Below, one piece after another: positions 3,413-14,279 of a DNA stretch of 50,165 nucleotides. The stretch is from Brockia lithotrophica (GTDB lineage Bacteria > Bacillota > Bacilli > Thermicanales > DSM-22653): NCBI GenBank assembly GCA_003050565.1, contig PEBW01000009.1, forward strand, positions 1 through 50,165, given 5' to 3'. The stretch's first letter is position 1; every line of letters starts with the position of its first letter. A program made the translations under genes and the position numbers. The notes beneath the pieces were generated by a model. It searched no databases, was not told where the DNA came from, and saw nothing but the letters and a program-made list of their open reading frames with translations.

Positions 3413-4936
3413 TCACGGAAGGACGGGCGCCCGCTCGTCCACGAGGGAGGTGAACGGAAGCCCGTGCCTGCGGGCGATGCGCTGGGCTTCCGCCGGACCT
3501 TCCGACCCTGCAGGGTAAAAGGCGAGACCTTCCTCACCGGCCGCGGAAAAGAATTCGGCGACGGGGTCGACCCAACGCCAGGCGGCCTCCACTTCGTCCC
3601 AGCGGGTGAAGTTCGTAGGATCGCCTACGACGACGTCGTAGAGGAGGCGCTCGTACGCCTCGGGGGTATTGAAGCCTATGGCCTCGCCGCGGGAGAGCTC
3701 CATGGCCGTCGGGACGAGTTGGAAGGGCGAGCGCGACGCGCGCACGTTGAAGGTGAGGAAAACCCCCTCGTCCGGCTGCACGCGAAGCACGAGGCGGTTG
3801 GGGGTGAGTTCTTCGCCCTCGATCCCGGAAAGCGCCTTCACCGTCGGCGGAAGGTTGCGAAAGTGGATCACGATGTCTGTCCTCTTGCGCGCCAGGCGCT
3901 TGCCCGTGCGCACGAGGAAGGGAACGCCCCACCAGCGGAAGTTTTCGAGGAAGAGCACGGCCGCCACGTAGGTTTCCGTCGTTGAAGTGGGTTTCCCAAT
4001 CTCCTCGCGGTACCCGGGGACGGCCTCCCCGAGGGTGACACCCGGGCGATATTGCCCGCGGACGACGAAGAGGGGGACTTCTTCCGGGCGGTAGACCCGG
4101 AGGCTCCGGAGGGCCTTCACCTTTTCGTCGCGGATTGCCTCGGGTTCGAAGCGGCCGGGCGGCTCCATGGCCACCATGGCAACCATCTGAAGGATGTGGT
4201 TTTGTACCATGTCCCTGAGCGCGCCGGCCGCCTCGTAGTACCCCTTGCGGTCGCCCACGCCGACCGTCTCGGCGGCGGTGATCTCCACTTGGGCGATGTA
4301 GTGGCGGTTCCAGAGAGGTTCAAAGAGGAGGTTGGCGAAACGGAGGACGGCGATGTTTTGCACCATCGCCTTTCCCAAGTAGTGATCGATGCGGTAGATG
4401 TCCCGTTCGTCAAAGGCTTCGAGAAGCGCGGCGTTGAGCTCGCGGGCGGAGCGAAGGTCCCAACCGAAGGGCTTTTCGATCACCACGCGGCGAAACCCGC
4501 TTCCCTCGAGAAGGCCGCTCGTCTTGAGACCCTGGGCAATGGGAGCGAAGTGCTGCGGGGCGATGGAGAGGTAAAACACGCGGTTGCCGGGTAGGGAAAA
4601 CCTCTCCTCGACCCCGGCGATGCGGGCCGCGAGTTTCGCGGTCGTTTCGGCGTCGCCCACATCCGCGGACAGAAAGGAAAAGCGCTCCAAAAACGAGCGT
4701 GCCGCTTCTCCGTACAGGGCGAAGGGGCGGTACTCGTTTACCGCCTTGCGTACGAACTCGCGGTAGGCTTCGTCGTCGAACGGGCGGCGGGATACCCCGA
4801 GCACGGCCATGCGTCCTCGGAGCTCCCCTCCTTTCCAGAGTTCGTAGAGGGCGGGGTAGAGCTTGCGACGGGCGAGATCTCCCGTCGCCCCGAAAAAGAC
4901 GAAGAGTACGTGGGGTACGTCTACCTGTCGATACAC
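3413..4936 (-). CDS. zwf: Glucose-6-phosphate 1-dehydrogenase
   Basis: Oxidises glucose-6-phosphate to 6-phosphogluconolactone with NADP+, the first step of the oxidative pentose phosphate pathway. The N-terminal dinucleotide motif FGATGDLARRKLYPAL and the substrate-site signature RIDHYLGKAMVQN are both present, and the 507-residue length fits the family. I choose the GTG at 4936, which has a run of G residues as ribosome binding site eight bases upstream and about 13 residues before the FGATGD motif, as in homologues. An in-frame ATG at 4996 would add 20 residues of unlikely sequence. The gene is at the left border of the tRNA-Leu insertion site and appears undamaged. Confidence 0.95.
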   Translation of the reverse strand: MYRQVDVPHVLFVFFGATGDLARRKLYPALYELWKGGELRGRMAVLGVSRRPFDDEAYREFVRKAVNEYRPFALYGEAARSFLERFSFLSADVGDAETTAKLAARIAGVEERFSLPGNRVFYLSIAPQHFAPIAQGLKTSGLLEGSGFRRVVIEKPFGWDLRSARELNAALLEAFDERDIYRIDHYLGKAMVQNIAVLRFANLLFEPLWNRHYIAQVEITAAETVGVGDRKGYYEAAGALRDMVQNHILQMVAMVAMEPPGRFEPEAIRDEKVKALRSLRVYRPEEVPLFVVRGQYRPGVTLGEAVPGYREEIGKPTSTTETYVAAVLFLENFRWWGVPFLVRTGKRLARKRTDIVIHFRNLPPTVKALSGIEGEELTPNRLVLRVQPDEGVFLTFNVRASRSPFQLVPTAMELSRGEAIGFNTPEAYERLLYDVVVGDPTNFTRWDEVEAAWRWVDPVAEFFSAAGEEGLAFYPAGSEGPAEAQRIARRHGLPFTSLVDERAPVLP

Positions 4937-5057
4937 GTCGCCGGCCCCCCCTGCAAACGACGATGGAGGAAAAAGCAAAGGGCCTCCTACGATCATCGTA
5001 CCTCAGAACCCGCAAAATATCTCGCGGGAGATTCTCAAATCGGTAAGGAGACGAAAA

Positions 5058-5083
5058 CACGCCCCCTTGCAAGGGGGCGTGTG
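5058..5083 (-). terminator. Perfect palindromic terminator, original 3' boundary of the tRNA cluster
   Basis: A 26-bp perfect palindrome built on ACACGCCCCCTTG and its complement. On the minus strand it is followed by TTTTCG. It lies downstream of the tRNA-Leu 3' fragment at 5200-5257, so it was probably the native terminator of the tRNA cluster before the element separated them. Confidence 0.7.
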
Positions 5084-5116
5084 GCTTTCGACTCTCCCGA
5101 AATCAAGCGCACGGGC

Positions 5117-5257
5117 TTCCCCGAGTCGCGTGGGTCTAAAGGCCCGTTTCCGCGAAACCCATTTCCTTCCAAAACCGCAAAGCCGCACAGATTCTAAGCT
5201 GGTGCCGGTGACAGGAGTCGAACCTGCACGGGGGGTCACCCCACGCGATTTTGAGTC
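5117..5257. repeat. Left 141-bp direct repeat (attachment site)
   Basis: Identical to 14109-14249 except for one base (T at 5136, G at 14128). The repeat contains the 3' part of tRNA-Leu(CAA) from the anticodon loop to CCA (5257-5200) plus 83 bp of DNA beyond the tRNA. The two copies lie exactly 8,992 bp apart in the same orientation and bound the element. The partial tRNA copy is here and the complete one is at the right end. Confidence 0.9.
5200..5257 (-). pseudogene. tRNA-Leu(CAA) 3' fragment displaced by the element
   Basis: Covers the anticodon loop, variable arm, T-arm, acceptor 3' strand and CCA of the tRNA that is complete at 14192-14279. Identity stops abruptly at 5257/14249. It cannot fold as a tRNA and is the leftover original 3' end of the target gene. 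Confidence 0.88.
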
Positions 5258-5408
5258 CCTATTCTTTTAATTGCGAATACCCGCAGCAAATCAAGGAATT
5301 TGGAGGGAGTCGAGTTAGTTTTCAATTTTGCGCCGAGTGAGGCAAAAAGGAATACGATAACCCAACTCGATTCATCAGGGGATGCCCAAAAGATGGGAGG
5401 GGTATACC

Positions 5409-6320
5409 GTGAACCGCCCGTCGTGGTCTGAAGCACTCGCCGAATTTCTTCTCCACAAGCGCGCGGAAGGAATTCGCGAGGAAACCTTGCGGGGATACGA
5501 ACGGCACGTGAAGCAGTTTTTCAACCGGTATCCCCGGGCGTGGGAAGACATGTCCGCCCTGAGGCAATCGGCTTTTGAATGGTTGTCAGAACCCGTGAAA
5601 CCGGCGACGTACAACCTCCGGCTCGTGTATGTCCGCGCCTTCCTGAAGTGGTGTCGCGAACAAGGTTACGTGGACGACAATCCCCTTCAGAAGTTCAAGC
5701 GCCGAAAGGCGGATCCCCGCATCGTAGAGCTTTCGGAAGAGACGCTAAGGGAACTTCTTCAACTTCCCGACCAAAAAACATTTTCCGGGCTCCGAGACTA
5801 TGCCCTTCTGCTTCTCACGCTTGATACGGGCATTCGCCCGAATGAGGCGTTTCAACTACTCCCAGAAGATTTCGACTTTCGAACGCTCAGCGTGCACATT
5901 CGCGCCGAAGTATCCAAGACGAAAACCTTACGTGTTCTTCCCATCTCTCCACAGACGGCGCAGGCGGTTCGAAAGCTCCTCAAAGCACACCATCCGGACT
6001 GGAATGCTAAGACGCCGGTCTTTTGCACATTCGACGGTCGCCCGCTTAACCGGTATACCTGGAATGAACGGCTGAATATGTACAGTGAGCGCCTTGGCGT
6101 CAAAATCCGACCTTACGATCTCCGCCATGCGTTTGCCCTGCTTTTTCTTCGCCAGGGCGGACATGCCTTCGCGCTTCAAAGAATCTTGGGGCACGCCGAC
6201 ATGAGCATGACGAAGCGCTACGTCGCCCTTACACAAGAAGACCTGAAAAACATCCACGCCGTGGCGACGCCCCTCAGTGTAGTCTTAAAATCTCCTCACC
6301 CGCGGAGGAGAAAGCTGTGA
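5409..6320 (+). CDS. int: Tyrosine recombinase / integrase of the element
   Basis: Catalyses integration into and excision from tRNA-Leu. The 303-residue product has an N-terminal SAM-like core-binding domain (about 5-95) and a C-terminal catalytic domain. The catalytic Arg is in DTGIRPNEA (about 143), the Lys in the SKTKTLRV beta-hairpin (about 172), then YDLRHAF (Tyr-Asp-Leu-Arg-His replaces the usual His-x-x-Arg-His, about 236-240), LGHADMS (His about 262) and the nucleophile Tyr in KRYV (about 271). I choose the GTG at 5409 because GGGAGGGG stands six bases before it; the ATG at 5382 has no spaced site. The gene points away from the adjacent left repeat into the element. No excisionase gene is recognisable. 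Confidence 0.92.
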   Translation: MNRPSWSEALAEFLLHKRAEGIREETLRGYERHVKQFFNRYPRAWEDMSALRQSAFEWLSEPVKPATYNLRLVYVRAFLKWCREQGYVDDNPLQKFKRRKADPRIVELSEETLRELLQLPDQKTFSGLRDYALLLLTLDTGIRPNEAFQLLPEDFDFRTLSVHIRAEVSKTKTLRVLPISPQTAQAVRKLLKAHHPDWNAKTPVFCTFDGRPLNRYTWNERLNMYSERLGVKIRPYDLRHAFALLFLRQGGHAFALQRILGHADMSMTKRYVALTQEDLKNIHAVATPLSVVLKSPHPRRRKL

Positions 6321-6546
6321 AAACCTTTGCACAACGAAGAGGAGCAGGGGGAGGTTACCACGGATGTGTGCGGGGGGAATTTCTGGGGGAATTAACGGAG
6401 GTGCCTACTTGTCCCGATACTTGGACTTGGAGCGGATGGAGTTCTATCTTTCCACGCAAGGGGAGATGAAGGACGCTCTCCCCCCCTACTTCCCTCCGTG
6501 GAGAGGGAAAAACAGGTAGATCCGCCTCCTCTAGGTCATAACCTTG

Positions 6547-6563
6547 TTACCCAGATTGGGTAA
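6547..6563. promoter_or_regulatory. Palindrome TTACCCA-GAT-TGGGTAA upstream of the cargo promoter
   Basis: A perfect 7-bp inverted repeat with a 3-bp spacer, about 29 bp upstream of the -35 element at 6592. Its symmetry and position suit a dimeric regulator-binding site. No second copy was noticed, so the role is inference. Confidence 0.4.
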
Positions 6564-6591
6564 GTCCACAAGTAGGCGAGGTTAAAAGTAG

Positions 6592-6620
6592 TTGATCCCA
6601 TAAACGAGGCACGGTATAAT
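6592..6620 (+). promoter_or_regulatory. Sigma-A promoter for the membrane-anchored cargo gene
   Basis: TTGATC (6592-6597), a 17-bp spacer and a perfect TATAAT (6615-6620), about 35 bp before the start codon at 6655. A strong constitutive-looking promoter. Confidence 0.8.
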
Positions 6621-6654
6621 AGTCTTTGAAGAATTTTACAAGGAGGCGATGTGT

Positions 6655-8262
6655 ATGAGCAGTTTCATTGAAAGTGTGAAAACTTGGCTCAAGAACCACC
6701 CCCGGATCCTTCGTTTCGGAATTCCCACCCTCGCCCTTGTTCTGGTCGCACTTGGAGCATTCTTCCTCCTTCACGGGAAGGGCGGGGAAAGTGCCGGCGC
6801 CCCGGTGGCTACCCAAGAAGAGGTTGCTGCCTACTTGAAGGAGCAGGAGCGCCTGCGCGCCGAAAACTGTTGCCTCGCCGTAAAGCTTCCCGTTCCCGAA
6901 GGGTGGGAAGTGCCCGAACATCTCAAGTCTAAGGCTCCCCAGGCGGTGCCTCCCGTAGAGGGAGCTTCTACGCCCTTTGTCAAGGAATACTGGCTGAACT
7001 TGCTTACGGACGAGGCGTTGGAGATTTTTAACAAGCTTCCGAAGACGCGGGAGGAAAAGGAGAAAATCCGCAACCGCGTTCTTCTTACGGGAGATGCGAC
7101 ACAGGAAGAAAAGGATATTTACAACCTGTTTGCCGATTATCCGCATCCGGTGTATATCTGGATGAGGGAGTTTCTGAGAACCGAAGAAGAACTCCAAAAA
7201 CAGCAAGAAGAATTTCTCTCCCTCTTCGAGCGGGCAAAGCAAGGAGACCCGGACGCCATCGGGCGGCTCGGTCGTTTCAAACCCGAAGATCCGGAGAATC
7301 AAAAGCCTCACCCCGAAGGATTTCCGAAGTCCCTCCTGGATGCGTGGAAGGAGCGCCTCTCCCGCTACTCGATTACGTTTCTGGGGTTCTACGCATACCC
7401 CCGAGAGGTGCCGGAATCCACGGCGGAGCTTCTAATGCTGGAAAACGACCACGATTTCAGCTCGGATGGGGATGATCTCGTGCAGGCGATGGACGAGTAT
7501 TACAAGGAACCCAAGGTTTCTCTGGACGAGATCGATGCACACCTCCACACTTTTTCTTCCGAAGAATTGTCTGAAAAGAAGTTCTTGTACGCCGACGAAT
7601 GGGTTAAGCGTGAGCCGTGGCATATCATAAGTTTTTTCCCCAACCCTTCGGACATTTCGGCGGGAGAATATTACTATCCTAAGTTTATCCTCGTCGACTA
7701 CTCCTTCGACGAGAGCGGCAAGCTCAACTCCTTCACCTTCCGCCCGATCGGGACGCGCGCCCTCTACCGCATCGACATCGAAAATCCCGTAGGAAGCGTC
7801 GTAAAATCTTTCGAATGGCGCGGCCCGGCGGATCTCGCGAAGGATACGATTTCGTTCGAATTCGCGGACAAAGATCACGAAGACCTCCTCCGCACGCTCG
7901 TACAGTACAGAGTTCCCGTGGGAATTGATTTGATCCCGTTTAGGGAGCATTTCAACGGACAAGTGAGATTTCTCGAACAAGACCCGAGCAAGATGGTGTT
8001 CTTCTTCGACTACAAAGCCTACGCTCCCGACAACATCCTTGTCACCGCCCGCGGGGGAGACTTCGAGTTCGTAGTGGGAGGGTATTCCCCCGACACGCCG
8101 CACCCGATCCTTCCGGAAGTCTTCCTCGGAGTACACGAACTCGACAAGTACCATCCGGAGTTGCGGGGTCAGTTGCAGACGCCCCTCTTCTGGAAGAAGC
8201 ACCCGACCGTTCAAGACCGCAAGCAGTGGGGATGGGGGGCTCTCGGTATCGACGAATACTAA
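6655..8262 (+). CDS. Membrane-anchored protein of unknown function (element cargo)
   Basis: A 535-residue product that I do not recognise. Residues 1-20 are basic and amphipathic (SVKTWLKNHPRILR). One hydrophobic segment follows at about 21-39 and the remaining 490 residues are hydrophilic, so it is probably a signal anchor with the bulk outside the cell. Residues about 45-75 are charged and possibly coiled; a Cys-Cys pair lies near residue 75. Acidic stretches and a FEWRGPADLAKD-type mixed region suggest a soluble alpha/beta domain in the C-terminal half. No catalytic motif or sortase signal is seen. The ATG at 6655 is chosen because AAGGAGG lies eight bases upstream; the ATG at 6649 is too close. 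It has its own promoter and terminator, so it is a single-gene unit. Confidence 0.8.
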   Translation: MSSFIESVKTWLKNHPRILRFGIPTLALVLVALGAFFLLHGKGGESAGAPVATQEEVAAYLKEQERLRAENCCLAVKLPVPEGWEVPEHLKSKAPQAVPPVEGASTPFVKEYWLNLLTDEALEIFNKLPKTREEKEKIRNRVLLTGDATQEEKDIYNLFADYPHPVYIWMREFLRTEEELQKQQEEFLSLFERAKQGDPDAIGRLGRFKPEDPENQKPHPEGFPKSLLDAWKERLSRYSITFLGFYAYPREVPESTAELLMLENDHDFSSDGDDLVQAMDEYYKEPKVSLDEIDAHLHTFSSEELSEKKFLYADEWVKREPWHIISFFPNPSDISAGEYYYPKFILVDYSFDESGKLNSFTFRPIGTRALYRIDIENPVGSVVKSFEWRGPADLAKDTISFEFADKDHEDLLRTLVQYRVPVGIDLIPFREHFNGQVRFLEQDPSKMVFFFDYKAYAPDNILVTARGGDFEFVVGGYSPDTPHPILPEVFLGVHELDKYHPELRGQLQTPLFWKKHPTVQDRKQWGWGALGIDEY

Positions 8263-8269
8263 CGAATTT

Positions 8270-8297
8270 CCCGGGCGTCCGCGCCCGGGGTTTTTTT
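8270..8297 (+). terminator. Intrinsic terminator after the membrane-anchored cargo gene
   Basis: CCCGGGCG (8270-8277), loop TCCG, CGCCCGGG (8282-8289), then a run of seven T. It begins eight bases after the stop codon. Confidence 0.93.
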
Positions 8298-8300
8298 ATT

Positions 8301-8343
8301 TTGGAAAGGGTTTGTCGTTTTGTATAATATAATTTGGTATAAT
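8301..8343 (+). promoter_or_regulatory. Promoter region of the secreted cargo gene
   Basis: Two TATAAT hexamers, at 8323-8328 and 8338-8343. The first has TTGGAA at 8301-8306 with a 16-bp spacer. The second has only a poor -35 (TTGTCG at 8312, 20-bp spacer). One or both may be used. Confidence 0.6.
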
Positions 8344-8363
8344 GCTAAAGGAGGTGATTCGAT

Positions 8364-9158
8364 GTGCTGAAGAAAGCTATTGCCGTTTTTATCACTTTAT
8401 CCCTTATCGTTTCCATTCTTCCGATACCCGCTTTTTCTGCTTTTGCGGCTACGAATACGCAGACGGTAAACATTCCCATTCAAAATTCCGGATCTCCGAT
8501 ATCCGGGGTCGCGTATTTGCCGCCTACGAACACGTCTCCGGAAGTGAAATTTGTGGTTGAATTTAGTAGAGTAAGGCTCAAACTAGTCCCTCTTCCCGAC
8601 GGGCAGAGATTGTTTTTGGATGAAATACAAAACAATCTTTCTGTACTTTCTGTAAATCCGGAGAATGATTTTGCACAAGAATTTGCAAACCAAATGGTAA
8701 ATTGGATTAAAAATAACACGGGCGGTACATTTTCTTACGGCTTGAAATCTTATTCCGGTCTCCCCTACGACATCTGGAATGTCGGCGTCGGCAGTAGCGA
8801 TCCCGGCATGGTAGGGAGAGATTTTGTGTATAATAATACGTTTTATACCGAAATCACCCTCCCAGACGGGCAAAAAGCCCACATTCGAGGCACAAAGGCC
8901 GTGATGAAATTCACGACCGGAGGATTTGTTCTTGGTGGCAATCCTGAAAAAGTCCGTGATGGAGGTATAGTCTACCCCGACAGCAAAATCGTCGCCACCC
9001 TCACCATTACGTACAACGGCATTTACGTCTACCCTAATTCCGCTCCGAAAAAACTTACTTCCTACTATCCCGTGATCCGCAACAAACAGGTTTCCTTCAA
9101 CGTTGCGGGGAAACAGTTTTCGGACGTTTTGAAGGATGGAGTCGACTCCTTTTTCTGA
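8364..9158 (+). CDS. Secreted protein of unknown function (element cargo)
   Basis: A 264-residue product with a classical signal peptide: MLKK, then a hydrophobic core (about 5-22) and a likely cleavage site after AFA near residue 28. The mature part is rich in Asn, Tyr, Thr, Gly and Val, has no cysteine and looks all-beta. It has no lipobox, LPxTG or other anchoring motif, and I do not recognise the family. The start is the GTG at 8364, nine bases after a near-perfect AAGGAGGTGAT; the reading frame excludes the overlapping ATG at 8362. The gene is more AT-rich than the chromosome, which suggests foreign origin. Export of two neighbouring products suggests a surface role for this element. Confidence 0.8.
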   Translation: MLKKAIAVFITLSLIVSILPIPAFSAFAATNTQTVNIPIQNSGSPISGVAYLPPTNTSPEVKFVVEFSRVRLKLVPLPDGQRLFLDEIQNNLSVLSVNPENDFAQEFANQMVNWIKNNTGGTFSYGLKSYSGLPYDIWNVGVGSSDPGMVGRDFVYNNTFYTEITLPDGQKAHIRGTKAVMKFTTGGFVLGGNPEKVRDGGIVYPDSKIVATLTITYNGIYVYPNSAPKKLTSYYPVIRNKQVSFNVAGKQFSDVLKDGVDSFF

Positions 9159-9163
9159 GGTAC

Positions 9164-9192
9164 TTGACATATGCACGAGGTCTGGGTATATT
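9164..9192 (+). promoter_or_regulatory. Sigma-A promoter of the 141-residue protein gene
   Basis: Perfect TTGACA (9164-9169), a 17-bp spacer and TATATT (9187-9192). It starts five bases after the stop codon of the secreted protein gene. Confidence 0.85.
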
Positions 9193-9203
9193 CTACTTAG
9201 GAG

Positions 9204-9229
9204 TTGGGCACACCTATTTTGGACACACC
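9204..9229. promoter_or_regulatory. Tandem 11-bp repeats, candidate operator
   Basis: TTGGGCACACC (9204-9214) and TTGGACACACC (9219-9229) are direct repeats differing at one base and spaced 15 bp apart. They begin about five bases after the expected transcription start of the promoter at 9164-9192, where a bound repressor would block initiation or early elongation. Function is inferred from position. Confidence 0.45.
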
Positions 9230-9259
9230 AAAACTAACTCTTGAAGGAGGATATCCTAG

Positions 9260-9685
9260 ATGGCATGGGAAGTTGTCGATGTGAAACTTCCTCGCGGTCG
9301 TGGATCGGAAGAAGGTGCGTATATCCGCGTAAGTCGTACGGGAGCAGCTTCTCTCAGTCGCGCAGCCGTTGAAGTTCTTGGGAATCCCGACTATGTGACG
9401 ATCCTCATCGACCGAAGCCGTGATCTCTTCGCAATTCGTGCCGCAAAGGCGGAAGAAGCCGGAGCTCGAATGCTCCGTCGGGCGGCAGTAGGTTACACCA
9501 AAACCATGCGATTTGCCAACCTTCTCCGCATCGCAGGGGTTCGGAAGCGTGTTGGCAATGTCTCACTCGAATACTCTGAAGAAGACGGGCTTCTTGTAGG
9601 GAAGTTAGAGGATATCCGAAACCTTCCTCCGGCGAATGAGCCGTCCCCACGCAAGAGGGGAGAGGGAGGAGAGGAAATTTCCTAG
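9260..9685 (+). CDS. Small protein of unknown function, possibly a DNA-binding regulator
   Basis: A 141-residue product. Residues about 20-60 (YIRVSRTGAASLSRAAVEVLG, then a short beta segment LFAIRAA) have the strand-turn-helix-strand look of swapped-hairpin AbrB-like or related domains; this is a weak resemblance, not a recognition. The middle is basic (RMLRRAAVGYTKTMRFANLLR), and the tail is charged and probably disordered. AAGGAGG stands nine bases before the ATG at 9260. Because the strong promoter is followed at once by tandem repeats, I suspect an autoregulated control gene of the element, but a structural or cargo role is equally open. Confidence 0.7.
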   Translation: MAWEVVDVKLPRGRGSEEGAYIRVSRTGAASLSRAAVEVLGNPDYVTILIDRSRDLFAIRAAKAEEAGARMLRRAAVGYTKTMRFANLLRIAGVRKRVGNVSLEYSEEDGLLVGKLEDIRNLPPANEPSPRKRGEGGEEIS

Positions 9686-9729
9686 AAAGGCAGTTGGTTT
9701 ATCCCCTCTAAAGTCTTCTGAAAACCTAC

Positions 9730-9763
9730 AAAAGGCGGTTCATTCGATCCGCCTTTTGTTTTT
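9730..9763 (+). terminator. Intrinsic terminator after the 141-residue protein gene
   Basis: AAAAGGCGG (9730-9738) pairs with CCGCCTTTT (9749-9757) over a 10-nt loop and is followed by GTTTTT. Confidence 0.9.
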
Positions 9764-9820
9764 GGTGTAGGAAATGTTTCATATTTTTCGTTTACTTAGA
9801 TCTTTTTGGGAAATACATGT

Positions 9821-9829
9821 GGTATAATG
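9821..9829 (+). promoter_or_regulatory. -10 region for the small AT-rich genes
   Basis: TATAAT at 9824-9829, preceded by a T-rich stretch but no clear -35. It lies about 92 bp upstream of the ATG at 9922. Confidence 0.45.
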
Positions 9830-9921
9830 AGGATGGACGTACTCCCCTTGATGTACGTCGGGGAAAGAAGTAAGAACATCTAAACTACTCTTTAGGTAAA
9901 CCGGAAAGAGAGGGATTTTTC

Positions 9922-10140
9922 ATGGGACGTGAAAATTTTGCAAAGCCAGAATACCAAAAGTTTATTTTTACCTTACTAGAAAAATATACTGCAGAAGAAA
10001 TTCACGCACTTAAGTTTTATCTTGCGTATAAGTATGAAGAATATACTAAAGAATTACCAAAAGGTTTACTTGGAAAAAGAAATCCGGAAATTTTCGATCT
10101 GCCTCCGGAAGAACTTGAAAATATTCTTAAAGATTTTTAA
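9922..10140 (+). CDS. Small hypothetical protein, upstream half of a possibly split gene
   Basis: A 72-residue, Lys/Glu/Tyr-rich, predicted helical protein with no recognised family. It is much more AT-rich than the chromosome. A GAGAGGGA-type site precedes the ATG at 9922. The frame stops at TAA (10138-10140), yet the same frame resumes immediately and stays open to 10275 with similar composition. The ancestral protein may therefore have been about 117 residues, and this could be the first part of a gene broken by a nonsense mutation. Confidence 0.6.
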   Translation: MGRENFAKPEYQKFIFTLLEKYTAEEIHALKFYLAYKYEEYTKELPKGLLGKRNPEIFDLPPEELENILKDF

Positions 10141-10158
10141 CCTAAAAAATACATTCAC

Positions 10159-10275
10159 ATGATTGAAGAACAAAAGAAAAGATGGGAAGAGATTAAGCAA
10201 AAACACAAGAGTATTCTAGAAAACGCAGAAAAAGAAAAGCTCGCCAAAAAGAGAAAGAAAGAAAGAAGATGTTAA
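10159..10275 (+). CDS. 38-codon basic ORF in frame with the preceding gene
   Basis: Starts at the ATG at 10159, encodes a Lys/Glu/Arg-rich helix (MIEEQKKRWEEIKQKHKSIL start) and ends at TAA 10273-10275. There is no ribosome binding site and it is in the same frame as 9922-10140, 18 bases after that stop. It is either a downstream fragment of one interrupted gene or a coincidental open stretch in AT-rich DNA. Confidence 0.35.
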   Translation: MIEEQKKRWEEIKQKHKSILENAEKEKLAKKRKKERRC

Positions 10276-10433
10276 TAACCTTACGATTTTTGATTTTCTT
10301 CCACCCGAGGATAAGAAAAACTTCTTATAAACGTACTTGAGTCGCGTCATATAACAAACATAAAACACTTAAAATAAAAAGCATTGGAAATTTCATATTA
10401 ACTAAATCATCCTTTGCACGCGGGGAGACCCTT

Positions 10434-10768
10434 GGAGGAGATAGAATGCTCGGGAGGAGATCATGGAGGAGATTCTGAAATCCATCTCCTCCGTTTAAAT
10501 TATCGCATTTATGCGGGTTTGAGACTATTCGGAGGAGATGGAGGGGATAGTTGTAGATGTTTATCTCTTGTTTGCAGATAACTTCTCCACGCGAGAGGGG
10601 ATGATTTTATCCTATAAATTTTTCCTCAAGAAAATAAAAAATATCTCCTCCATCTCCTCCAATATCTCCCTTCTCCGCGTGGAGACTGGAAGTTTGGCGG
10701 AGGAAATGGAAAATAACATCTCCCCCACTATCAACTATATCTCCTCCGTCTATCTTCTAATCTCCTCC
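10434..10768. repeat. Iteron array, candidate replication origin of the element
   Basis: The 9-mer GGAGGAGAT occurs exactly nine times in 335 bp. Plus-strand copies start at 10434, 10453, 10465 and 10531; complementary copies (ATCTCCTCC) start at 10484, 10643, 10652, 10739 and 10760. One-mismatch copies start at 10540, 10699 and 10718. The copies form two clusters, 10434-10548 and 10643-10768, on either side of a stretch of about 95 bp with a strongly AT-rich core at 10602-10644. This two-cluster layout around a possible DNA-unwinding element, just upstream of a primase/ATPase gene, suggests an origin with Rep-binding sites. Confidence 0.75.
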
Positions 10769-11128
10769 GCCTAATATAATTGCAAGACTAAGCACCCTTC
10801 ATGTAAACCGAACGGAATCTTTCGGAATCGAGAATGATACTTCCTAAAGTACACCTCCTTCCCCTTCCGATCGAGTTTTCCGGATTTGCAGGAATTGCTC
10901 ACAACCCTATATGTAAACCCCACGCATCGTGGGTAGTCGAGTCTTGCCCCCCTAACTCTTGAACGGCGTAACGCTTGGGTTGGTCGGAGAAACCGCGTTT
11001 GCTTTGCGGGAAGGAGAATTCGTGATAAAATGATATGTGGGGTTCACCCATAAAGCGTCGAACCAACGGAGAAACTTCGCTCCCAACAACCTTCTTCGAA
11101 CCGCGAGAAAAATTTTTTCGTTAGGGTA
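10769..11128. other. Non-coding interval between iterons and the replication gene
   Basis: No credible gene. It holds a 6-bp inverted repeat with a 3-base loop (CCCACG-CAT-CGTGGG, 10919-10933) and a direct repeat ATGTAAACC (starting at 10801 and 10911). It may be leader or regulatory DNA for the replication gene. I also saw no gene between 10276 and 10433. Confidence 0.4.
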
Positions 11129-11156
11129 TTGACTTAGTAGATAGACGTGGTATAAT
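11129..11156 (+). promoter_or_regulatory. Sigma-A promoter of the primase-polymerase/ATPase gene
   Basis: TTGACT (11129-11134), a 16-bp spacer and a perfect TATAAT (11151-11156), about 41 bp before the ATG at 11198. Confidence 0.8.
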
Positions 11157-11197
11157 AGTGTCGGAAACCTTAGAATGATCTTGTTGGGGGGATTCGT

Positions 11198-13714
11198 ATG
11201 AACACCAAAAAATATTTCCCTCACGAACTGCGTGTAATGGAAAGGTGGATTTTCTGGCGAATGGTGGACAGGAACGGACGGAAGACGAAAGTCCCTGTCG
11301 GGGAGGATGGACACCCTATCTCCCTGAAAGATGAACGGCATTGGAAGACGCTGGATGAGCTCGAGAGGATGAAAAACGATTCCCTTCACGACGGGGTAGG
11401 GTTTGTATTCACGGCAAAAGACGGACTGATAGGAATTGACCTCGACAACGCCTTTGAGAATCCGTTCGACGCGAAATCTGTTAAGCCCTGGGCTCGGGAA
11501 ATTTTGGAGCGCTTTCGCGAGGCGTATATCACGTGGAGCCCTTCGGGAAAAGGCGTCCACATCATCCTCCTCGGCACGTGGGGACAAGGGCATAGGAGGA
11601 AGCTTGGCGACGGTGGGATTGAGGTTTACGCGGACAAGAGGTTTTTCACCATGACCGGGCTGCTGGTCGAAGGATACAGCACGCCTAAACTCGTCGAGGC
11701 TCCAGAGGCTCTGGAGTGGCTTGGGAATCGGTATTTCGGCGAGGAGGAGGTGAAGAAAGGCATGAAGGGTGTTGGTGTGGTGTCGAATGCACCGATTACC
11801 CGTGCCGAGGTGCCTCCAGGGCTACCGGACAGCGTACATGAGTTGCGCCGAGCCTTGGAGAACGGCAAGACCAGCGAGGAGGAGATTTTACCTCTCCTTC
11901 TCGCTGCACTTCCGCTTGCCGGTGAACTCGGGAAACGGGCGATGCGGCTCATCCAGGGCGATGCAGAAGCTCTTGCGGAGTTTCTGAACGACCAATCCTC
12001 CATTGAACAATCTCTTGCCAACGCCTTCGCCGTGGTTACCGGCGGCGACCATGGGATGATCATCAAACTCCTTACGCTTTTCTCCCCACGATGGGAAAAG
12101 CACGAAAAACTCGAGCGCGAGGATTACCTAGAGCGCACCGCAGCCGAAGCTGTGGACTGGTATTATACCACGCACCGTCGGAAGATTGAAGTAAAGCATG
12201 GCGTACTCGACCATGAAGTACGCAATGCAGCCTTGGAGGCACTCCAATGGCGCTATGAGGGGCGACTCTTCCTCTACGGAGATGCGCCTGTAATCTTAGA
12301 GGGCGATCGCCTCCACACCCTTGATCCGGTACGTCTCTCCTTGCTCCTTGCAGACGCGGCGATCTTTCAACGCGGAGCTAAGGGGAGGCAAATCGACCCT
12401 CCGGATAGGCTGGTAAGGGCTTTACTCGAGTATGTCAAGATGCGGAATGTGTGGCCCAACCTTCGCGGCATCGTTCAGGCGCCGCTTGTCTTCGACAACG
12501 GTCGCGTGGTGAATAAGAACGGGTATGACCCCGATTCGGAACTCCTCTTCGTAAACTTGCCGCCCATCGACATACCAAGTTCTCCCACGAAAAACGACGC
12601 GATGGAGGCTTACGGGAGAATCGTCTCTATGCTCGACTTTGCTTTCGCAACTCCTTCTGACGAATCCGCCGCCGTCGCCTACCTCCTCACCGTCCTTCTC
12701 CGACCTGCAATATCCTTGGCTCCACTCTTCCTGATCACCGCTCCAAAACCGGGAAGCGGGAAAACGACGTTAGCACAGGTTGGAGGAGTCGTAGCTTACG
12801 GGCGGATACCAGAAGTTCATCCGGAACCCGGGAATGAAGAAGAATCCCGCAAGCGCATCGATGCATCGCTTCTCGAAGGTCGTACGCTTATCATCCTGGA
12901 CAACCTACACCGCGACATCCGCTTGCCTACCCTCGAAGCGACGCTCACCTCTGAGATGGTCACCATCCGTCCTCTCGGGCGCTCGGAAACGCGCACCGTG
13001 CCGAATACCGCCACTTTCGTCGCCACGGGCAACAATATCGCGCCGAGAGACGATATGCAACGTCGAACGGTCGTAATTCGCATCGAAGGGCGGTCAGAAC
13101 CCATGTTCTCAGAAACGACGGAGGGACGGAAACAGTCGTTCTTACACGAAATCCTCTCCCGCCGCAATGAGCTCCTTTCCGCCCTTCTCACCATAGTCCT
13201 TGCATACCATCGTGCGGGAAAGCCAAACGTGCAAGCCATCTCCTTCCCCTCGTTCGAGGAGTGGGCACAAATGGTTCGCGACCCGCTCGTATGGCTCGGG
13301 GCAGCCGATCCCGTGGAGACGGTTCAAAGAACGATTGAGGAGGATGAATACAGGGCGGCTTTGACAGCCATGTTCGAGATTTTGCATGAGGAGTTTGGCT
13401 CTAATCAATTTTCCTCCCGAGAGGTTGCAAATCGCTTCAATAGTTTAGTACAAACGAACAAAACAAACTCAGACGGACGTACCGATTTGATTCTCGAGCT
13501 AGCTTCCCGACTGAAGATGACCAATCGCTTCGAAGAGTTCGACTCAACGCTGATAGGATACAAGCTTCGCGAGTGGAGGGATCAGGTACACGGCGGTTTT
13601 AAGCTCGTCCGTGTGGGGACGGGGCACGGCAAGATGACGAAGTGGCAACTCGTGCAGGTTGCCACGGCGGAGGATGAAGTAAGGGAATCTCTGTCAGAAA
13701 AAGTTTATGAATAA
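11198..13714 (+). CDS. Primase-polymerase / AAA+ ATPase fusion, replication initiator of the element
   Basis: An 838-residue protein with two recognisable parts. Residues about 10-160 match the archaeo-eukaryotic primase-polymerase type seen in phage NrS-1 polymerase: an opening WIFWRMVDRNGRKTKVPV, the metal-binding GIDLD (Asp81, Asp83), SPSGKGVHI (114-122, with His121) and EVYADKRFFTMTG (142-154). Residues about 480-640 form a P-loop ATPase with Walker A PKPGSGKTT (517-524), Walker B TLIILDN (563-569) and a sensor-like ATFVATGNN. About 200-470 is an unassigned linker and helical region; the tail (710-830) may hold a winged helix. It probably primes and unwinds DNA at the adjacent iteron origin. 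A strong promoter and a G-rich ribosome binding site precede the ATG. Confidence 0.88.
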   Translation: MNTKKYFPHELRVMERWIFWRMVDRNGRKTKVPVGEDGHPISLKDERHWKTLDELERMKNDSLHDGVGFVFTAKDGLIGIDLDNAFENPFDAKSVKPWAREILERFREAYITWSPSGKGVHIILLGTWGQGHRRKLGDGGIEVYADKRFFTMTGLLVEGYSTPKLVEAPEALEWLGNRYFGEEEVKKGMKGVGVVSNAPITRAEVPPGLPDSVHELRRALENGKTSEEEILPLLLAALPLAGELGKRAMRLIQGDAEALAEFLNDQSSIEQSLANAFAVVTGGDHGMIIKLLTLFSPRWEKHEKLEREDYLERTAAEAVDWYYTTHRRKIEVKHGVLDHEVRNAALEALQWRYEGRLFLYGDAPVILEGDRLHTLDPVRLSLLLADAAIFQRGAKGRQIDPPDRLVRALLEYVKMRNVWPNLRGIVQAPLVFDNGRVVNKNGYDPDSELLFVNLPPIDIPSSPTKNDAMEAYGRIVSMLDFAFATPSDESAAVAYLLTVLLRPAISLAPLFLITAPKPGSGKTTLAQVGGVVAYGRIPEVHPEPGNEEESRKRIDASLLEGRTLIILDNLHRDIRLPTLEATLTSEMVTIRPLGRSETRTVPNTATFVATGNNIAPRDDMQRRTVVIRIEGRSEPMFSETTEGRKQSFLHEILSRRNELLSALLTIVLAYHRAGKPNVQAISFPSFEEWAQMVRDPLVWLGAADPVETVQRTIEEDEYRAALTAMFEILHEEFGSNQFSSREVANRFNSLVQTNKTNSDGRTDLILELASRLKMTNRFEEFDSTLIGYKLREWRDQVHGGFKLVRVGTGHGKMTKWQLVQVATAEDEVRESLSEKVYE

Positions 13715-13867
13715 AGGTACGTTTTGAATTAAGCACAATATACCGGATGCCGTGCTTGCCACGTATACTACCTCACGGGAACATTCTGCCGGCGATCCTT
13801 CGTTACCGTCTTGTCCTCGTAACGCACTTTCGCCCGACCCTCCACCTGCATGCTTCGGATATGCTAA

Positions 13868-13918
13868 AACCGCCCCATCGGAGGGGCGGTTATTGTTTGC
13901 CGGGCACGATTTGCCCGG
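13868..13918. terminator. Tandem hairpins at the right end of the element
   Basis: AACCGCCCC (13868-13876) pairs with GGGGCGGTT (13883-13891); a second stem, CCGGGCA (13900-13906) with TGCCCGG (13912-13918), follows. On the minus strand the first stem runs directly into TTTTAGC. The pair would stop the replication transcript and also the tRNA-operon transcript entering from the right. Confidence 0.7.
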
Positions 13919-14108
13919 GTTATAACATAAATGAAATATTTTTCTAAGCCTAGCCCTGTGTTCTTGTTCCTGACTCCACGCACGAGGAAGGCGCTTTTTT
14001 AGAACAAATGTTCAAAAATGAAAAGCGGAAGAAGGGTTGACACCCTATCCTCCTTCAGGTTAAGCTAGAACTGCTTCACTCGATTCACCAAAGGAAGGGT
14101 TGCTCCCT
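13919..14108. other. Right border interval with a LexA-type palindrome
   Basis: No gene seen here, and none between 13715 and 13867. GAACAAATGTTC at 14002-14013 fits the Gram-positive LexA core GAAC-N4-GTTC. No start codon or clear promoter lies beside it, and one such match per 50 kb is expected by chance. Near 14095-14112 the sequence AAAGGAAGGGTTGCTCCCTTT can form a weak hairpin just beyond the attachment repeat. Confidence 0.35.
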
Positions 14109-14249
14109 TTCCCCGAGTCGCGTGGGGCTAAAGGCCCGTTTCCGCGAAACCCATTTCCTTCCAAAACCGCAAAGCCGCACAGATTCTAAGCTGGTGCCGG
14201 TGACAGGAGTCGAACCTGCACGGGGGGTCACCCCACGCGATTTTGAGTC
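14109..14249. repeat. Right 141-bp direct repeat (attachment site)
   Basis: Matches 5117-5257 with one mismatch. Here the repeat joins the 5' part of the tRNA to make a complete tRNA-Leu(CAA). The element-borne 3' end therefore restored the target gene. Confidence 0.9.
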
Positions 14250-14279
14250 GCGCGCGTCTGCCAATTCCGCCACACCGGC
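14192..14279 (-). tRNA. tRNA-Leu(CAA), integration target
   Basis: A class II tRNA of 88 nt with encoded CCA. The acceptor stem GCCGGTG pairs with CACCGGC, the anticodon loop is CTCAAAA with anticodon CAA, and there is a long variable arm (GTGGGGTGACCCCCC region). It is the last gene of the cluster, and its 3' two-thirds come from the element's attachment site. Confidence 0.95.

What the first reader, a model, noticed from the sequence alone, without database searches (positions are those of the whole stretch)
10434..10768. Nine exact 9-bp iterons in two clusters around an AT-rich core
GGAGGAGAT occurs nine times (four on one strand, five on the other) within 335 bp, with three more one-mismatch copies. 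The two clusters flank an AT-rich stretch, and a strong replication-gene promoter lies about 360 bp downstream. The layout resembles the origins of staphylococcal pathogenicity islands, where Rep-binding iterons flank a melting region. The motif also equals the core of a Shine-Dalgarno site, so the initiator must distinguish it by arrangement.
Basis: partly seen in the sequence, partly recalled or inferred. Interest (0 to 1): 0.75.

Follow-up and report, generated by a model that had tools for sequence, protein, structure and literature searches.

The report
Mobile element's two-armed replication origin
The repeated 9-base motif is almost certainly the replication start site of a small mobile DNA element sitting in a tRNA gene; the same two-armed layout, written in quite different repeat sequences, recurs beside related replication genes in phages and genomic islands, so the layout seems to matter more than the letters.

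Summary
They lie in a 9.0-kb integrated element (141-bp att repeats 5117-5257/14109-14249, right copy in tRNA-Leu(CAA)) carrying a tyrosine integrase and an 838-aa AEP primase plus D5-type helicase Rep. A second element at the same tRNA in a same-genus genome (Rep 66% identical) keeps all 12 sites, in order and orientation (iterons 89% identical, spacers 48%), and the AT-rich core. Rep's C-terminal half models well (pLDDT 87); the best structural match is the SaPI5 primase-helicase. Many relatives carry their own, different iterons in two opposed arms, and several lineages repeat the same plan: 9-bp tandem pairs beside the core, flipped copies, about six sites per arm. So this is a PICI/SaPI-type Rep origin, best read as a loading platform for two helicase hexamers. 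It differs from PICI origins in lying upstream of rep rather than just downstream, and the element is not a PICI by gene content. The one-site-per-subunit (6+6) idea is inference. Binding and replication are untested.

The parts
5258..14249 (.). integrated mobile element, 8,992 bp, GC 39-56% per kb for most of its length in about 65% GC surroundings
   Evidence: att repeats, composition
5117..5257 (.). left att direct repeat (3' half of tRNA-Leu plus flank)
   Evidence: 141 bp, 1 mismatch to 14109-14249
14109..14249 (.). right att direct repeat, running into tRNA-Leu(CAA)
14192..14279 (-). tRNA-Leu(CAA), integration target
   Evidence: ARAGORN, Rfam
5382..6320 (+). tyrosine integrase, 312 aa
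   Evidence: PF00589 2.6e-27; 87% identical in sister element
6649..8262 (+). cargo: conserved 537-aa membrane-anchored-looking protein of unknown function
   Evidence: 44% identical in sister element; no family match
8364..9158 (+). cargo: 264-aa protein with signal-peptide-like N-terminus
   Evidence: 49% identical over 228 aa to the 399-aa protein of the sister
10434..10548 (.). left iteron arm, six sites: 10434+, 10453+, 10465+, 10484-, 10531+, 10540+
10584..10593 (.). left arm of inverted repeat TCTCCACGCG just outside the AT core
   Evidence: I19; conserved in sister
10600..10642 (.). AT-rich core, probable melting region
   Evidence: least stable stretch of the origin in both species
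10643..10768 (.). right iteron arm, six sites: 10643-, 10652-, 10699+, 10718-, 10739-, 10760-
10676..10685 (.). right arm of inverted repeat CGCGTGGAGA
   Evidence: I19; conserved in sister
10780..11110 (.). stretch between origin and promoter, mostly absent from the sister element; single copy in genome
11129..11156 (+). rep promoter TTGACT-N16-TATAAT
   Evidence: conserved in sister
11198..13714 (+). Rep: AEP primase-polymerase (about 1-180), helical linker, D5/SF3-type AAA+ helicase (about 500-640), C-terminal winged-helix-like domain (about 717-820)

Best explanation
10434-10768 is the replication origin of a 9.0-kb element integrated in tRNA-Leu(CAA). After excision by its tyrosine integrase, the element's Rep binds the GGAGGRGAT iterons, most likely with its C-terminal winged-helix domain. 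The two arms, pointing towards each other, each assemble one Rep ring, so that two helicase hexamers face the AT-rich core, melt it (10600-10642) and unwind outwards; the primase domain then primes synthesis and the host polymerase copies the circle. Shown: iteron clustering, conservation of every site, AT core, element boundaries, Rep homology and predicted fold, recurrence of the layout beside related Reps. Inferred: Rep binding, hexamer loading, roughly one iteron per subunit, excision and replication.
For: Extreme clustering. The sister element in G001 at the same tRNA keeps all 12 sites in order and orientation, iteron columns 89% vs spacers 48% identical, AT core and promoter kept. Rep = AEP primase (NrS-1, SaPI5) + D5-type helicase with best fold match SaPI5 primase-helicase, then poxvirus D5/E5 and NrS-1; matches include PriRep1 with dsDNA (7pds, Z 12.6 over model 4-492). 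In 13 of 27 Rep lineages a cluster of at least five identical 8-mers flanks rep (11 downstream, 2 upstream), against 9 of 1007 control segments. The ordered plan of the window (inner 9-bp pairs, flipped copy in each arm) is matched by 1 of 20,000 permutations of its own intervals and orientations; G001 0, L141 6, L148-type 6-13, L126/L127 about 50. SaPI Rep binds its iterons through its C-terminal domain (PMC7581432).
Against: No binding, excision or replication data. Published PICI/SaPI origins are 3' of rep; this is 5'. No iteron cluster was found for 14 of 27 lineages by this scan (shorter iterons, cut flanks or none). A 13th, weaker site (10594) blurs the 6+6 count, and with an 8-mer key the automatic split gave 6+7 and a poor permutation value (399/2000). 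The layout features were chosen after looking at the data.
Confidence: 0.87

Rival explanations
1. The iterons are mainly a regulatory array: Rep or another element protein binds them to repress rep transcription (autoregulation, copy-number control), and the true origin lies elsewhere.
For: They lie upstream of the rep promoter on the same side; iteron plasmids often use such repeats for both origin and control (established knowledge).
Against: The promoter is 361 bp away here and 81 bp in the sister, while the inner geometry is fixed; the layout around an AT core recurs downstream of rep in relatives, where it cannot sit at the rep promoter. No second repeat cluster was found beside rep.
Confidence: 0.07
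2. The array is a centromere-like partition site bound by a segregation protein.
For: Clustered short repeats are typical of partition sites (established knowledge).
Against: No ParA/ParB/ParM-type gene was recognised in the element; two opposed arms around an AT-rich core are not usual for such sites; the same layout accompanies rep in relatives.
Confidence: 0.02
3. The layout is degenerate: a decayed, no longer functional origin in a fossil element.
For: The element is integrated, and the 264-aa cargo protein lacks the C-terminal part seen in the sister.
Against: att repeats differ by one base in 141, int and rep are open reading frames, all 12 iterons are within one mismatch.
Confidence: 0.04

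Closest known systems
SaPI / PICI replication origins (PMC6092414; SaPI Rep background in PMC7581432)
   Same: Two iteron sets flanking an AT-rich region beside a rep gene; initiator of the same primase-helicase kind as SaPI5 Rep (best fold match).
   Different: Origin is 5' of rep instead of immediately 3'; int and rep on the same strand; element 9.0 kb rather than about 15 kb; no PICI regulatory, packaging or interference gene recognised.
NrS-1-type phage primase-polymerase-helicases (PDB 6a9w, 6k9a, 6lrb)
   Same: N-terminal AEP domain (E about 5e-15) and C-terminal helicase fold.
   Different: Found here in a small integrated element; the helicase half matches Pfam DUF5906.
SCCmec Cch2 helicase with its putative origin (PMC7581432)
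   Same: D5-family helicase with a C-terminal domain that binds direct repeats next to its gene.
   Different: Primase is separate there, only three short iterons, downstream of the gene.
Primase-helicase loci of phage contigs (L126, L127, L148/L185 type, L141, L046)
   Same: Iteron plan with opposed arms and inner 9-bp tandem copies, mostly with flipped copies; Reps about 25-35% identical.
   Different: Entirely different iteron sequences; cluster downstream of or overlapping the 3' end of rep. L121 is the one other case with the cluster upstream, but its plan is simpler.

Membership tests
SaPI5/NrS-1-type primase-helicase initiators | N-terminal AEP primase-polymerase domain with catalytic DxD, SxH-like and basic motifs | tested here: met
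   D81/D83, SPSGKGVH (H121), R148 conserved in alignments; PDB hits E about 1e-14; fold match to NrS-1 N300
SaPI5/NrS-1-type primase-helicase initiators | C-terminal D5/SF3-type AAA+ helicase | tested here: met
   Walker A GSGKTT, Walker B LIILDN, arginine R623; model pLDDT 87, top matches 7ola/7om0 Z 14.7/14.1, D5, NrS-1; generic AAA+ rings score about 11
SaPI5/NrS-1-type primase-helicase initiators | C-terminal domain binds the iterons | not testable with these tools
   winged-helix-like helices and strands predicted at about 717-820; binding needs an experiment
[quoted passage not shown]
PICI-type replication origin | origin immediately 3' of the initiator gene | tested here: not met
   iterons end 429 bp before the rep start codon; no cluster 3' of rep
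Phage-inducible chromosomal island (Gram-positive PICI) | int transcribed opposite to the rep module, with a divergent regulator pair | tested here: not met
   int and rep both on the + strand in both elements; no regulator family recognised
Phage-inducible chromosomal island (Gram-positive PICI) | packaging or phage-interference genes | tested here: inconclusive
   none recognised by Pfam, PHROGs, PADLOC, NCBIfam, but cargo is of unknown function
Phage-inducible chromosomal island (Gram-positive PICI) | induction by a helper phage | not testable with these tools
   needs experiment
Phage-inducible chromosomal island (Gram-positive PICI) | size typically about 15 kb | tested here: not met
   8,992 bp
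Integrative element in a tRNA gene | integrase next to one end and direct repeats, one inside a tRNA gene | tested here: met

The most novel reading that the evidence does not exclude
The arrangement itself is the conserved signal: primase-D5-helicase initiators use a fixed plan of about six iterons per arm (inner 9-bp tandem copies, a spacer, one or two flipped copies, outer copies), one site per subunit of two facing hexamers, while the iteron sequence is freely replaced and the whole origin can move from one side of rep to the other. The plan would then not be exclusive to PICIs, as stated in PMC6092414, but general to phages, islands and integrated elements with such Reps.
Probability: 0.4. 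Interest if true: 0.72.

Novelty: new variant of a known kind. Interest (0 to 1): 0.55.

Why it matters
It places a PICI-type origin in an element that is not a PICI and upstream of the gene, and shows the same layout in phage contigs with unrelated repeat sequences. [quoted passage not shown] the data here argue that it follows the initiator type instead. A fixed plan with changing repeat sequence would let origins be predicted from geometry in hundreds of uncharacterised replicons, and makes the question of how self-loading hexameric helicases are placed in facing pairs directly testable with a compact 335-bp DNA and one protein.

Tried and rejected
Sequence scans of genome contigs with the Rep and with the Rep pair found no relative, so the host organism could not be named. 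The literature query on a guessed host name was not used. Shine-Dalgarno or coding explanation of the repeats: the copies lie on both strands, the ORF 10538-10774 has no start codon in the sister at the same place, and clustering is far above background. RNA element: only miRNA models far below their gathering scores matched at the iterons. DnaA boxes: only two-mismatch sites. The 331-bp stretch between origin and promoter as a repeat element: single copy in the genome. First structure job for whole Rep gave a poor helicase half (pLDDT under 50 for 412 residues); its dynein and ClpB matches were ignored; the C-terminal half refolded with 22 closer relatives was good. An 8-mer-based automatic arm split mis-split the window because of the weak site at 10594 and was replaced by 9-mer consensus sites. 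Sister-genome extra tRNA-Leu copies were rejected as a feature: the contig has a run of N between them.

Full report
OBSERVATION. The host genome (1.69 Mb, 12 contigs) holds 104 copies in all; no other listed place has more than two within 400 bp. The expected number per 335 bp is 0.019 (Poisson P = 8e-22) and random sequences with the local dinucleotide make-up reach two at most.

THE ELEMENT. GC falls from about 65% to mostly 39-56% between about 5.1 and 14.1 kb. A 141-bp direct repeat with one mismatch bounds it (5117-5257, 14109-14249); the right copy runs into tRNA-Leu(CAA), at the edge of a ten-tRNA cluster. Inside are a tyrosine integrase, two cargo genes of unknown function, small ORFs, the iterons, and an 838-aa Rep. 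This is an 8,992-bp integrated element.

COMPARATIVE TEST. A same-genus genome (G001) has an element at the same tRNA-Leu, with integrase 87%, cargo 44% and 49%, and Rep 66% identical. Upstream of its rep, twelve sites match the twelve of the window one by one in order and orientation; eleven fall in the same alignment column and one is shifted by one base by the aligner. Consensus GGAGGRGAT. Iteron columns are 89% identical and spacers 48%. The two 9-bp tandem pairs beside the core (103 and 104 bp apart), the flipped copy 47-48 bp outside the inner pair on each side, the CCACGCG/CGCGTGG arms, the AT core and the promoter are all kept. The distance to the promoter is not (361 vs 81 bp).

THE INITIATOR. 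Residues 15-164 match the NrS-1 primase (E about 5e-15) and residues 7-182 the SaPI5 primase-helicase (7ola, E 1.5e-13). The predicted N-terminal domain is NrS-1-like. The C-terminal half (331-838), modelled with 22 phage-contig relatives, has pLDDT 87 and pTM 0.80; best alignments are SaPI5 primase-helicase (Z 14.7, 14.1), poxvirus D5/E5, NrS-1 C-terminal region and PriRep1 with dsDNA, with generic AAA+ rings such as MCM and E1 at about 11. Four helices and two strands at about 717-820 look like a winged helix. In SaPIs the C-terminal domain of Rep recognises the iterons (PMC7581432), so the same is proposed here.

RELATIVES HAVE THEIR OWN TWO-ARMED ITERONS. I scanned the flanks of related rep genes from genomes and viral contigs. 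At 50% single linkage there are 27 Rep lineages; 13 have at least five identical 8-mers within about 400 bp beside rep, 11 downstream and 2 upstream (the window's lineage and L121). Control segments gave 9 of 1007. Iteron sequences differ completely: TATACCCA (L033), GTCCTAAA (L126), ACGTCCTTA (L127), AGGTTCAC (L185), AAACCCGC (L141), CCTGTTAC (L039), GGGTGATA (L121). Several share a common plan: window >19>12>19<47>9> |103| <9<47>19<21<21<; L126 >20>12>65>9>10> |94| <9<10<37>17<21<; L202 >20>18<37>9>9> |65| <9<9<37>12>17< (arrows turned to one convention; sites with up to one mismatch). Counts are 6+6 in the window, G001, L126, L127 and many of the L148 type, otherwise mostly 5 to 7 per arm in that group; other lineages (L039, L046, L218, L033, L048 and the large SaPI-like group) show fewer or differently split sites. 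Permuting each locus's own intervals and orientations reproduces the window's features in 1 of 20,000 trials, G001 0, L141 6, L148-type 6-13, L126/L127 about 50; L121, L218 and L046 do not stand out. The features were defined after inspection, and the L148 type is one large related group, so these are descriptive figures.

MECHANISM. Most likely two Rep rings assemble on the two opposed arms, face the AT core, melt it and unwind outwards after the element has excised; the primase domain starts synthesis. That about six sites per arm equals the six subunits of a ring is an attractive reading, not a result; [quoted passage not shown]

FILING. Initiator: a member of the SaPI5/NrS-1 primase-helicase type. 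Origin: PICI-type two-armed iteron origin, but 5' of rep where PICI origins are immediately 3' (PMC6092414). Element: not filed as a PICI, since int-rep orientation, origin position and size do not fit and no packaging or regulatory gene was recognised. [quoted passage not shown] the present element and about 45-50 kb viral contigs with the same layout suggest it goes with the initiator type. Whether those contigs are full phages was only partly checked (replication-type genes near rep).

LIMITS. No experiment. Short iterons (5-6 bp, as in many SaPIs) would escape the 8-mer scan, so 14 lineages without a cluster are not evidence of absence.

Noticed in passing
G000:C3 about 9000-13000 (L219 about 4000-8000): A second AT-rich island in the same genome carries a copy of the 537-aa cargo gene (92.6% DNA identity over 1,479 bp) without rep, iterons or tRNA nearby.
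   Followed up: partly
window 8364-9158: The 264-aa cargo protein ends where its sister's 399-aa homologue continues for about 170 residues, so it may be truncated.
   Followed up: partly
window 10780-11110: About 280 bp between origin and promoter missing from the sister element, with imperfect inverted repeats (10908-10928/11032-11052) and a 21-bp direct repeat; single copy in the genome, no RNA family match. Possible control RNA or remnant of another element.
   Followed up: partly
L185 7361-7616 and other L148-type loci: In this phage-contig group the whole iteron array lies inside the 3' end of the rep coding sequence, so the origin also encodes the protein's C-terminal tail.
   Followed up: no
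L150 8744-10291 (-): A reverse-transcriptase-like gene (PHROG 1423, E 6e-28) next to the primase-helicase module of a viral contig.
   Followed up: no
L045 2902-2951: Short tandem array of GCTTACAGCA-like units near a 296-aa primase-only relative.
   Followed up: no
L007 6408-6690: Two tRNA-Leu(CAA) copies on either side of a run of N at the left end of the sister element; probably a scaffold artefact.
   Followed up: partly
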